From Actinomycetota bacterium (GTDB taxonomy: Bacteria > Actinomycetota > Acidimicrobiia > Acidimicrobiales > Poriferisodalaceae), in contig JABABU010000003.1 in assembly GCA_014238065.1 (NCBI GenBank), positions 1-64,000 on the forward strand: a stretch of 64,000 bases of DNA, written 5' to 3'. Each line of letters begins with the position of its first letter. Positions within the stretch are counted from its first letter, which is position 1. Shown here in pieces: positions 4,424 to 30,260 of this stretch. The notes beneath the pieces are model-generated. The model ran no database searches, was not told the origin of the DNA, and saw only the letters and a list, made by a program, of their open reading frames with translations. The position numbers and the translations under genes were made by a program.

Positions 4424-5388
4424 CAGCTGACCTCCGCCAGCGCACGGAGCCAGTCGACGACCTCGGCGCGAAGATCGTCGGGAGACAGCACAACGGCGTG
4501 CTCACGCAGACCGAGAACCCACGAACGGAACGCGTGGTGATTCCTCACCGGAACATTGACGACCACCGAGCCGTCGTCGTTCCGCTCGACCACATTGTCG
4601 ATGCCGCGTTGTCGCACTACGCGGCCGGCGAGAGCCGGATCGATCCACACCCTCGCTTCGACGGACTCATCGCCCCCGATCAACAGCGGATCGCGGGGCA
4701 TCGTGGCCGTCGGGTCGAAGTCGACTGGTAGCTCGTAGGACGTGTCGTCCTGTGGCGCGACATCGCCGTCGATGCGATCGACCCTGAAGGTCTTCACCGT
4801 GCCGTCGTCGTTGCCGGTCATGTACCAGTTTCCGTCGCGGTAGAACACGCTGTAGCAGTTGACGATGCGTGACCGGCCTGAATACTCGAACCGTACAGAG
4901 TTCTTCGTCCGCATCGCACCGTGCAGCACGGGCAGCGCCTCGAGCGCAGGGATCTCTGCAACCACCAGCGGCGGAGTTGCTCCCTCGCCACCGAGCTTGG
5001 CAACGGCCTGCTCGTCCCACGCCTCATCGAGTCGAACGACGGAAGCGGCGAGTTGCAGCGCGAGCCTCTCCGATTCGGTCAGGTCGAGGTCCGGGAGGAA
5101 ATAGTCCTCGGGTTTGATGGTGTACCTCGTGGCTCCCGACGATGGATCGATCTCGGTCGTGATGTCGATGCCGAGGTGCCTCAGCAGCGACTTGTCTCGT
5201 TCGAACGACTTACGGGAGCTCTCGCCCCGGTCGTTGTAGAGCGATGTCTGACCAACGATGTGGTCGAACGTGACAGGGTGCTGCGTGTCGAGCAACAACA
5301 TGAGCAGCTCGGTGATGCGTTCGACTCGATCGGCCACAGGTTGATCGTACGAGGCGGAGAGGAGCGGAGCGGCAACGAGTCGATTCAT
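4423..5388 (-). CDS. pafB: WYL-domain transcriptional regulator, PafB-like
   Basis: 321 residues: winged helix near residues 18-85 (VERITELLMLLLDTQHPVTFDHIV), a linker, and a WYL domain (about 150-215) with VRFEYSGRSRIVNCYSVFY, DGNWYMTGND and TFRVDRI. It pairs with the adjacent pafC-like gene and is expected to bind DNA as the PafBC complex during the mycobacterial-type DNA damage response; single-stranded nucleic acid is thought to be sensed by the WYL domain. The ATG at 5388 has GAAGGA directly against it, so GTG at 5337 is a possible alternative start. It is divergent from the secreted propeller-CAP gene, with 85 bases between them. Confidence 0.82.
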   Translation of the reverse strand: MNRLVAAPLLSASYDQPVADRVERITELLMLLLDTQHPVTFDHIVGQTSLYNDRGESSRKSFERDKSLLRHLGIDITTEIDPSSGATRYTIKPEDYFLPDLDLTESERLALQLAASVVRLDEAWDEQAVAKLGGEGATPPLVVAEIPALEALPVLHGAMRTKNSVRFEYSGRSRIVNCYSVFYRDGNWYMTGNDDGTVKTFRVDRIDGDVAPQDDTSYELPVDFDPTATMPRDPLLIGGDESVEARVWIDPALAGRVVRQRGIDNVVERNDDGSVVVNVPVRNHHAFRSWVLGLREHAVVLSPDDLRAEVVDWLRALAEVS

Positions 5389-28579: not shown

Positions 28580-29101
28580 TCAGGCTTCAGTGCCGAGCAG
28601 CGCAAATCGATCGTGGTCGCACCATCGTCCTCCTACCATGAGATAGCTCGGCGAGAATCCCTCGTAGCGGAACGACAATGCCTCTACCAGACGTCGCGAT
28701 GCCGAGTTGCCTGGCTGGATGTTCGCTTCGACGCGATGGAGGCCGAGCTCGCGAAACGCCCGCCTCAGAACCATCGCTACGCTCTCGCGTACCAGTCCGA
28801 GTCCTGCTGTCTCCGCGAACCCGTAATAACCGAGCGATCCGGACTGGAGCGAGCCCCTGAATATGTTGTTGATGTTCACCACACCGGCGAGTCGACCGTC
28901 ATAGGTGGTGGCTAGATGTGCCTCGACCGATGGCTTCTTGATGGCTTCCAGCCACATCTGGTACGCGACCGGTGTCCGCGGCGGATGAACCCAGCCATCG
29001 TGCAAGGCTTCGCTCGCTTCGACCGAAGCACAGAACCGCTCGAGGTCGGCGCCTGTGGGACGCCGAAGCACAACTCGGTCACCCCTGGCAAGAACGTTCA
29101 C
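28580..29101 (-). CDS. GNAT family N-acetyltransferase, RimJ/RimL-like
   Basis: 173 residues. [18 protein letters not shown] at the start, [23 protein letters not shown] as the beta-hairpin core, [47 protein letters not shown] as the acetyl-CoA binding and C-terminal half. This order matches the RimJ/RimL group that acetylates N-terminal amino groups of proteins or antibiotics; no substrate is implied. It is divergent from the selenoprotein gene with 58 bases between. Confidence 0.85.
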
Positions 29102-29159: not shown

Positions 29160-30260
29160 ATGCTCGTACGCGATGGCCACCCGATCGACGCAGACGTGTT
29201 CGCCCGCCGCACCGGTTGGTCGATCAGGCCCGAAGGCGCGTGTAAGGACGACACCTGCATTCCATTGCCGGACAGGCCGGTGACCGCCCAGAGCCTGAGC
29301 GAAAGACTCGGCATGGCCATTGCGACGTCTCCTGGAAACGACGTGATCGCCCTCGGTCCCCCCTCCATCGGCGGTCGGGCACTCGACAGCGTCACGGTTC
29401 CACACGACCTCGATTTCCTCGATTTCGATGACAACACCGTCCGGTTGAGAGACGTCAGAGGAAGCCGAACGGTTCTGGTGTCCTGGGCGCCATGGTGAGG
29501 CTGCGCCAACGATCTGCCCGTGTGGCAGTCACTTCATGAACAGGTCTCTCCTCACGGCGTGAACATCGTCTCGGTCTGTCTCGACACAGCAGGCACAGAA
29601 GCCGCCATGCCCCACGTCAACGCAGCCAGAGCAGTAGCGCAGGGCGAACCGCACCCGATGTTGTTCGACCCAGGTCACCTCGTCGATGAAGTCTTCGGGA
29701 TGATCAATGTGCCAAACGCCGTCTGGATCGACGGGTCAGGCAAGCTCGTCCGCCCCTCGGAGCCAGCCTGGCCGGCCGCGGCTCCGGAGCGGCCCGTACC
29801 TAGCGCTCCGCCCCCCGACGGCCGAATCGGGGCCATGATGGCCAACGCAGGTCAGATCGTGGCAGACAGAGCCGAGTACGCAGCAGCAGTCCACGACTGG
29901 GCACTCAAAGGCGCCAGCAGCCAATTCGTGCTTGCCGCCGACGAGGTCATTGGACGCTCGCTGCCCCGCGGACGAAATGAATCGCTTGCAGCTGCTCATT
30001 TTGAAATCGCGCAATTTCTCCACCGCAACGGAAGCGAGAGCGATGCGGTCGAGCATTTCCGTCGTTCGCACGAGTTACAGCCAGACAACTGGACGTACCG
30101 GCGCCAGGCGTGGTCGATGCAACCATCCGCGCTGGATGGCGGCCTCGAACGATTCTGGCAGGGCCCGATCGATGGGACGGATTGGCCTTATCGGGGTGAC
30201 TGGGTATCGGACATCGAACAGTCAGGCCCTGAGAACTACTACGGCCGGTTCGTCCCCTGA
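29160..30260 (+). CDS. Probable selenoprotein: thioredoxin-fold redoxin with Sec113 (in-frame TGA)
   Basis: Two frames of the same phase, 29160-29495 and 29499-30260, are separated only by TGA at 29496-29498. Together they encode 366 residues. The junction reads VSWAPW-[TGA]-GCANDLPVWQ, where redoxins have Cys, giving a U-G-C active site (Sec113, Cys115) on a TlpA/AhpC-like fold that continues with NIVSVCLDTAG and FGMINVPNAVWIDGSGKLV. Cys28 and Cys33 add a second pair. A TPR-like segment lies at about 275-310. A hairpin fitting a bacterial SECIS follows the TGA. TAGGTT 6 bases before the ATG suggests a leaderless start. Thiol or peroxide reduction is likely. The alternative is a nonsense mutation or read error; no Sec machinery genes are in the window. 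Confidence 0.75.
29511..29530 (+). promoter_or_regulatory. Candidate bacterial SECIS hairpin
   Basis: CTGCC-CGTGT-GGCAG forms a 5-bp stem, extended by GA/TC across a single bulged U (29513). The apical loop begins 21 bases after the TGA, has G as its second base and contains GU. In E. coli fdhF the bulged U lies about 15 bases and the loop GU about 20 bases after the UGA; here they are at 15 and 22-23. It lies within the coding sequence, as bacterial SECIS elements do. Confidence 0.65.

What the first reader, a model, noticed from the sequence alone, without database searches (positions are those of the whole stretch)
29160..30260. Unannotated selenoprotein: redoxin with TGA at the active-site cysteine plus a SECIS-like hairpin
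Seen: two same-phase frames meet at one TGA; the junction WAPW-TGA-GCANDLPVW places the TGA exactly where a redoxin Cys belongs, giving U-G-C. Coding sequence continues 253 residues beyond. A hairpin 13-32 bases downstream has a bulged U at base 15 and a G-U in the apical loop at bases 22-23, close to the E. coli fdhF layout. Known: bacterial SECIS elements lie just after the UGA with a G in the first two loop bases. Inference: selenocysteine is inserted here. An ordinary gene caller would split it into a short fragment and a headless protein.
Basis: partly seen in the sequence, partly recalled or inferred. Interest (0 to 1): 0.9.

Follow-up and report, generated by a model that had tools for sequence, protein, structure and literature searches.

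The report
Selenium-containing redox protein gene
This gene has a stop-like TGA codon that the cell almost certainly reads as the selenium amino acid selenocysteine, making a redox protein of a selenoprotein family that is already catalogued, so it is a genuine but ordinary find.

Summary
In detail: one frame, 29160-30260 (+), interrupted only by TGA at 29496-29498 inside WAPW-U-GC, with a hairpin at 29511-29530. The genome holds tRNA-Sec (UCA), SelA, SelB and a SelD with its own in-frame TGA. At the site, 78 of the 80 closest named relatives have TGA and 2 have TAG; both TAG genomes carry a CUA tRNA-Sec, 5 of 5 TGA genomes tested carry UCA. The 5-bp stem is intact in 125 of 125 Sec members examined and 2 of 10 Cys relatives, with compensatory changes. 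The 'bulged U' does not generalise: relatives mostly pair that base. Best explanation: a probably cytosolic ResA-like thiol/selenol oxidoreductase. Substrate unknown; no recurring neighbours found. Sec insertion is inferred, not measured.

The parts
29160..30260 (+). selenoprotein gene, 366 residues with TGA read as Sec (U113), true stop TGA at 30258-30260
   Evidence: NF041054 403.9 bits over residues 7-364
29496..29498 (+). TGA codon for Sec113 in WAPW-U-G-C
   Evidence: TGA 78/80 and TAG 2/80 in relatives
29511..29530 (+). bacterial SECIS hairpin: 5-bp stem 29514-29518/29524-29528, loop CGUGU 29519-29523, optional extension with U29513 bulged
   Evidence: stem intact in 125/125 Sec members examined, 2/10 Cys relatives
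29241..29258 (+). Cys28-x4-Cys33 (codons 29241-29243 and 29256-29258), present in 87 of 88 long-family relatives (1 gap)
   Evidence: invariant in A2
29502..29504 (+). Cys115, presumed resolving thiol, two residues after Sec113
   Evidence: 88/88 relatives (one of the two search patterns contained this GC, so the count is partly by selection)
29418..29750 (+). thioredoxin-fold (AhpC/TSA, ResA-like) core, residues 87-197
   Evidence: PF00578 and PF08534; Foldseek ResA 2f9s E 2.3e-8; PDB profile search
29868..30116 (+). C-terminal helical region with one TPR-like helix pair (residues 237-319)
   Evidence: AlphaFold2 model helices; TPR matches below the Pfam cut-off and weak single-repeat matches
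28580..29101 (-). divergent neighbour, GNAT acetyltransferase (context only)
   Evidence: PF13302
30296..30802 (-). convergent neighbour, YqgE/AlgH (DUF179) protein (context only)
   Evidence: PF02622

Best explanation
29160-30260 is one gene for a selenoprotein. SelB carrying Sec-tRNA-Sec (anticodon UCA) binds the hairpin just after the in-frame UGA and inserts selenocysteine as residue 113 (inferred from sequence and comparison, not measured). The product is a ResA/TlpA-like thioredoxin-fold oxidoreductase in which Sec113 is the attacking residue and Cys115 (U-G-C) the likely partner for a selenenyl-sulphide; a conserved Cys28-x4-Cys33 pair in an N-terminal domain may pass electrons to it (speculative). 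Its N-terminus shows no hydrophobic leader by eye (no predictor run), so it probably works in the cytosol as a disulphide or peroxide reductase. Substrate and electron donor are unknown.
For: Over-cut-off match to the curated family. Own genome has tRNA-Sec 67.2 bits with UCA anticodon, SelB 271.8 bits, SelA 381.8 bits, and SelD 365.8 bits with an in-frame TGA. Codon at the site in the 80 best relatives TGA 78, TAG 2; both TAG genomes have CUA in their best tRNA-Sec match, 5 of 5 TGA genomes tested have UCA. Stem: 5 pairs intact in 125/125 Sec members; over six pairs (18-23/29-34) 17 double-sided changes among 119 distinct Sec segments against a shuffle mean of 1.4, and 99.3% of cells paired against 96.3%, neither reached in 2000 shuffles; 2/10 Cys relatives intact. 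Codons of residues 119 and 123 change together, e.g. CTG/CAG to TTG/CAA, CTC/GAG, GTC/GAC. Confident model, pLDDT 93.1, with ResA as nearest solved fold for the core.
Against: No protein-level evidence. The unconstrained fold of 48 bases prefers another structure (hairpin probability 0.03). The basal pair 18-34, standard in 92 of 95 long-family members, is U-U here. Two Cys relatives keep the stem, and G in the first two loop bases is found in 10 of 10 Cys relatives too, so that feature does not separate Sec from Cys forms. Of the 11 genomes over the family cut-off, G064 (62% complete) shows no tRNA-Sec at cut-off strength (best E 3.5e-7). tRNA-Sec is common in the phylum sample (203 of 296 over cut-off), so co-occurrence alone says little. 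Sliding the partners by +3 gives 13 double-sided changes, not far from 17, though with only 29% of cells paired. The sequences are related, so neither the shuffles nor the Fisher test is a true probability. Redox function is inferred from fold and motif only.
Confidence: 0.94

Rival explanations
1. The TGA is a genuine stop and the locus is a decayed or truncated redoxin gene, or a sequencing error at a Cys codon.
For: A TGA differs from TGC/TGT by one base, and the genome is a draft of 56 contigs.
Against: The same TGA sits at the same residue in 78 of the 80 best named relatives and in 11 of 11 over-cut-off genomes (for G237 seen in L027); TAG replaces it in 2, both in genomes with a CUA tRNA-Sec; the frame is conserved for 253 residues beyond, with invariant residues.
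Confidence: 0.03
2. Read-through of TGA by a near-cognate tRNA or a local code change puts Trp, Cys or another residue there, not Sec.
For: Recoding of TGA to other residues exists in bacteria (general knowledge).
Against: The gene itself ends in TGA, as do relatives such as L051 and L053; a complete Sec apparatus is present; the codon and the tRNA-Sec anticodon change together in Blastococcus; the hairpin is kept in the Sec forms and mostly lost in the Cys forms examined.
Confidence: 0.02
3. It is a peroxiredoxin (peroxidase) and not a disulphide reductase (a rival on function, compatible with Sec at 113).
For: PF00578 AhpC/TSA is the best Pfam match (41.5 bits); PMC2398784 and PMC9312934 called the group 'UGC-containing Prx-like'.
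Against: Nearest solved folds are ResA-like, with TlpA and StoA in the list; NCBIfam's PrxU model scores 15.4 bits against a cut-off of 270; the newer review lists a TlpA disulphide reductase family. The enzyme has not been assayed as far as I saw.
Confidence: 0.3

Closest known systems
NCBIfam NF041054 WAxxUGC_long, 'ResA-like WAxxUGC motif-containing protein'
   Same: Whole length (residues 7-364 on profile 6-352 of 354), 403.9 bits over the cut-off of 300
   Different: Nothing found that takes it out of the family
Prx-like (UGC-containing) selenoprotein of PMC2398784 (2008; passages read), listed as 'UGC-containing Prx-like protein' in PMC9312934 and 'UGC-containing TlpA disulfide reductase family protein' in PMC13188914 (passages read)
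   Same: pfam00578-type domain and UGC Sec motif
   Different: Their sequences were not compared here; that the groups are one family is inferred from domain and motif
AhpC selenoprotein with Sec-TAG in Blastococcus saxobsidens (PMC5330540, passages read)
   Same: Same genus as the two TAG relatives found here, redoxin type, CUA tRNA-Sec
   Different: That sequence was not compared here; the window uses TGA
Bacillus ResA / Bradyrhizobium TlpA
   Same: Thioredoxin-fold core: 125 alignment columns (gaps included) to ResA 2f9s, TM-score 0.72 by target length
   Different: ResA has CxxC and is membrane-anchored outside the cytosol (recalled); here U-G-C, an added N-terminal CxxxxC domain and C-terminal helices

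Membership tests
NF041054 WAxxUGC_long selenoprotein | whole-protein score over the curated cut-off (300 bits) | tested here: met
   403.9 bits, E 6.4e-121
NF041054 WAxxUGC_long selenoprotein | WAxxUGC motif with in-frame TGA at U | tested here: met
   WAPW-TGA-GC
Bacterial selenoprotein | tRNA-Sec, SelA, SelB, SelD in the same genome | tested here: met
Bacterial selenoprotein | bSECIS: 3-9 nt loop, 4-16 bp upper stem, G in first two loop bases, loop 16-37 nt from UGA (constraints as quoted in PMC13188914) | tested here: met
   5-nt loop CGUGU, 5-bp stem, G second, loop starts at base 21 after UGA; bSECISearch itself was not run
Bacterial selenoprotein | Cys-containing homologues at the Sec position | tested here: met
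   0 of the 80 best relatives; 10 in the shorter related family
Bacterial selenoprotein | selenium in the protein | not testable with these tools
   needs 75Se labelling or mass spectrometry
E. coli fdhF-type SECIS with bulged U (layout recalled) | unpaired U in the stem, 5' of the apical helix | tested here: inconclusive
   possible in the window (bulged form -6.8 against -6.7 kcal/mol without the extension) but not conserved: 9 of 95 have U, 8 of these 9 can pair it
ResA/TlpA thiol-disulphide oxidoreductases | thioredoxin fold with a redox pair at the start of the first core helix | tested here: met
   model with helix 114-132 straight after U113, Foldseek
ResA/TlpA thiol-disulphide oxidoreductases | CxxC spacing | tested here: not met
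   U-G-C, one residue between; so 'ResA-like', not ResA: PRK03147 34.7 bits against 170

The most novel reading that the evidence does not exclude
The UGC family uses a common SECIS class without a fixed bulge (six pairs 18-23/29-34, five-base loop with G second) kept across Actinomycetota, Chloroflexota, Acidobacteriota and Proteobacteria, and its enzyme is a selenol relay in which an invariant N-terminal CxxxxC reduces a Sec-Gly-Cys centre. I made no search for prior descriptions of such a relay.
Probability: 0.25. Interest if true: 0.4.

Novelty: new member of a known kind. Interest (0 to 1): 0.2.

Why it matters
It adds one well-supported member to a catalogued selenoprotein family whose function I found nowhere described, and shows that reading raw sequence can recover a gene that plain stop-codon rules would split. 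The comparison gives a clear test bed: a Sec/Cys switch that goes with loss of the hairpin in 8 of 10 Cys relatives, and a TGA/TAG switch that goes with the tRNA-Sec anticodon.

Tried and rejected
Pseudogene or sequencing error: rejected, the TGA is shared by 78 of the 80 best named relatives. General stop read-through or code change: rejected, see rivals. Conserved operon partner: looked for among ORFs within the fetched flanks (at most 2.5 kb) of 80 named loci plus the window; the largest cluster of neighbouring ORFs spans 8 of 81 loci and no window neighbour recurs in more than 2, so neighbourhood gives no function. The ORFs there are mechanical, and some cluster examples look like reverse-frame ORFs. 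Viral relatives: one scan of viral contigs found none. The string 'WAxxUGC' occurs in 0 papers of the library and 'selenoprotein' + 'Acidimicrobi' + 'selenocysteine' together in 0; NF041054 is not named in the main text of PMC13188914. Distance between Cys28/Cys33 and Sec113 in the model could not be measured: no coordinate file lies in the script box. My first motif script looked at one strand only and another picked wrong motifs in five loci (L142, L148, L157, L158, L164); both were redone.

Full report
The gene. At 29160 an ATG opens a frame that runs to 30260 with one internal TGA at 29496-29498. There are 112 residues before it and 253 after it. Base composition by codon position is alike on both sides. 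The junction reads WAPW-U-GC. Pfam finds AhpC/TSA (41.5 bits, residues 87-196) and Redoxin (31.4 bits, 89-197) in the read-through protein, whereas the piece after the TGA alone scores only 14.6 bits for AhpC/TSA.

The family. NCBIfam NF041054, 'ResA-like WAxxUGC motif-containing protein', matches from residue 7 to 364 with 403.9 bits against a cut-off of 300. In 296 genomes drawn from the phylum, 11 have a match over the cut-off, and 0 of 14 control genomes do. Ten of the 11 best pieces contain one TGA; the eleventh (G237) begins after the site, and its TGA is seen in locus L027, where the frame also appears to shift shortly downstream. Record titles among the 80 name Acidimicrobiia and other Actinomycetota, Chloroflexi, Acidobacteria, Alpha-, Beta- and Gammaproteobacteria, Deltaproteobacteria and Myxococcales. 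One relative from the window's own family (L178) scores 267.2 bits, below the cut-off; I counted it and its three sisters with the long form.

The machinery. The window's own genome (3.94 Mb, 56 contigs, 94.65% complete) has tRNA-Sec at 67.2 bits with a UCA anticodon, SelA (381.8 bits) and SelB (271.8 bits) side by side on the same contig as the tRNA, and SelD (365.8 bits), which itself carries an in-frame TGA. tRNA-Sec is over the cut-off in 203 of 296 genomes of the phylum sample. Of the 11 genomes with the family, 9 are in the printed rows over the cut-off; for G237 only the E-value 2.2e-12 was printed; G064, 62% complete, has only E 3.5e-7.

The codon follows the anticodon. The two TAG relatives (L075, L085, both titled Blastococcus) lie in genomes whose best tRNA-Sec match (66.4 bits each) has the anticodon CUA, which ARAGORN labels tRNA-Pyl; the five TGA genomes tested all have UCA. 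CUA tRNA-Sec in Geodermatophilaceae, and an AhpC selenoprotein with Sec-TAG in Blastococcus saxobsidens, are published (PMC5330540, passages read), so this supports the reading but is not new.

The hairpin. Counting the T of TGA as 1, bases 19-23 pair with 29-33 around the loop 24-28. Among 125 Sec-coding members (95 long-family including the window, 30 of a shorter related family; 119 distinct segments) 125 keep the five pairs; of 10 Cys relatives 2 do (L142, L157). Fisher p is 2e-11 for all and 6e-7 within the short family, ignoring relatedness. G in the first two loop bases is present in 125 of 125 Sec and also in 10 of 10 Cys forms, so it does not discriminate. Over six pairs (18-23/29-34) the 119 distinct Sec segments show 17 cells changed on both sides, against a mean of 1.4 in 2000 shuffles, and 99.3% of cells paired against 96.3%; no shuffle reached either value. 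Sliding the partners gave 1 to 13 such cells with 23-72% of cells paired. The codons for residues 119 and 123 vary together: CTG/CAG 109, TTG/CAA 4, TTG/CGA 4, TTG/CAG 3, CTG/CGG 2, and CTC/GAG, GTC/GAC and TTG/CGG once each; in Cys relatives CTC/CAG 5, CTG/CAG 4, CTT/CAG 1. Not all is in favour: the 48 bases from the TGA on prefer another fold (hairpin probability 0.03), and the hairpin dominates (0.97-0.99) only when the first 12 bases, TGA included, are left out, as one may expect under a ribosome (the ribosome argument is inference).

In the window it can bulge, with nearly no gain in energy (-6.8 against -6.7 kcal/mol). In the long family base 18 is U in 9 of 95; in 8 of these it can pair with base 34 (U-A 5, U-G 3), and 84 of 95 have C-G; the window is one of three of the 95 that do not pair it. 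The bulge is thus not a family feature.

Cys relatives. A search of 248 genomes of the order with the Cys protein of G166 found matches in 97. Ten rows cover the site with no stop and code Cys (TGC or TGT). Two of the 10 genomes (G429, G341) have a clear tRNA-Sec (68.0 and 64.6 bits); in the other eight the best match is 47.5 bits or less, four of them just over the cut-off of 47 with hits 71-86 bases long. One of the two Cys genes with an intact stem lies in G429, which has tRNA-Sec, the other in G427, which has no clear one. Four genomes of the window's own family with the TGA form all have tRNA-Sec at 66-67 bits.

What it does. A model from 28 sequences (window and 27 relatives) is confident (pLDDT 93.1, pTM 0.91). 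Its core matches ResA (2f9s, E 2.3e-8, 125 columns; 50 of 1293 matches printed). In the profile search of solved structures the three best rows are designed TPR repeat proteins, each built of single repeats of about 7-12 bits; below them come thioredoxin-family, ResA, DsbE, TlpA and StoA chains. Across 88 long-family relatives Cys28 and Cys33 are present in 87 each (one gap) and Cys115 in 88; position 113 was written as Cys in that alignment whatever the codon, and the GC after it was part of a search pattern, so those two counts are partly by construction. I infer a Sec113/Cys115 redox centre and, less surely, electron supply by Cys28/Cys33. The C-terminal part is helical with a TPR signal below the Pfam cut-off. 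Neighbours are an aminotransferase, a GNAT acetyltransferase, AlgH, a two-component pair and ketol-acid reductoisomerase; none of the window's neighbours recurs in more than 2 of 81 loci.

What is known. PMC2398784 (2008, passages read) lists 'Prx-like (UGC-containing)', pfam00578, 46 selenoproteins in 15 samples and 855 Cys homologues; PMC9312934 (passages) and PMC13188914 (passages) carry it on, the latter as 'UGC-containing TlpA disulfide reductase family protein'. That these are the same family as NF041054 is inferred from domain and motif; I did not compare their sequences. So the finding is a true selenoprotein on all evidence short of a measurement, correctly spotted, of a known kind.

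Noticed in passing
L075:2498-2500 and L085:2498-2500 (Blastococcus): TAG at the Sec site of this family together with a CUA tRNA-Sec that ARAGORN labels tRNA-Pyl (L136, L135).
   Followed up: yes
L143-L170, L029, L031-L034, L171-L177: A shorter related family, Sec (UGC) in 30 and Cys in 10 of the loci examined; the two scored with NCBIfam (L143, L034) reach 218 and 190.9 bits on NF041054, below its cut-off, and no other listed model reaches its cut-off.
   Followed up: partly
L035:1600-1602 (+) and L043 (- strand): A UTC variant (SSWUTC, ATWUTC) in two more distant relatives with in-frame TGA.
   Followed up: no
G000:C53:88268-89185 (L049): SelD of the same genome has an in-frame TGA, so it is probably a selenoprotein itself.
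   Followed up: no
window 4509-4601 (-): ARAGORN reports a tRNA with a four-base anticodon (cggt) that has no Rfam match at gathering score; probably a false positive.
   Followed up: no
L058, L060, L079: Metagenome-assembled records titled Bifidobacterium breve (L058, L060; sequence around the site like L059, titled Acidimicrobiaceae) and Klebsiella pneumoniae (L079) carry this gene; the titles may be wrong species labels.
   Followed up: no
G237:C1:422945-423958: A second family copy with one TGA and one TAG in frame; may be decayed or a sequencing fault.
   Followed up: no
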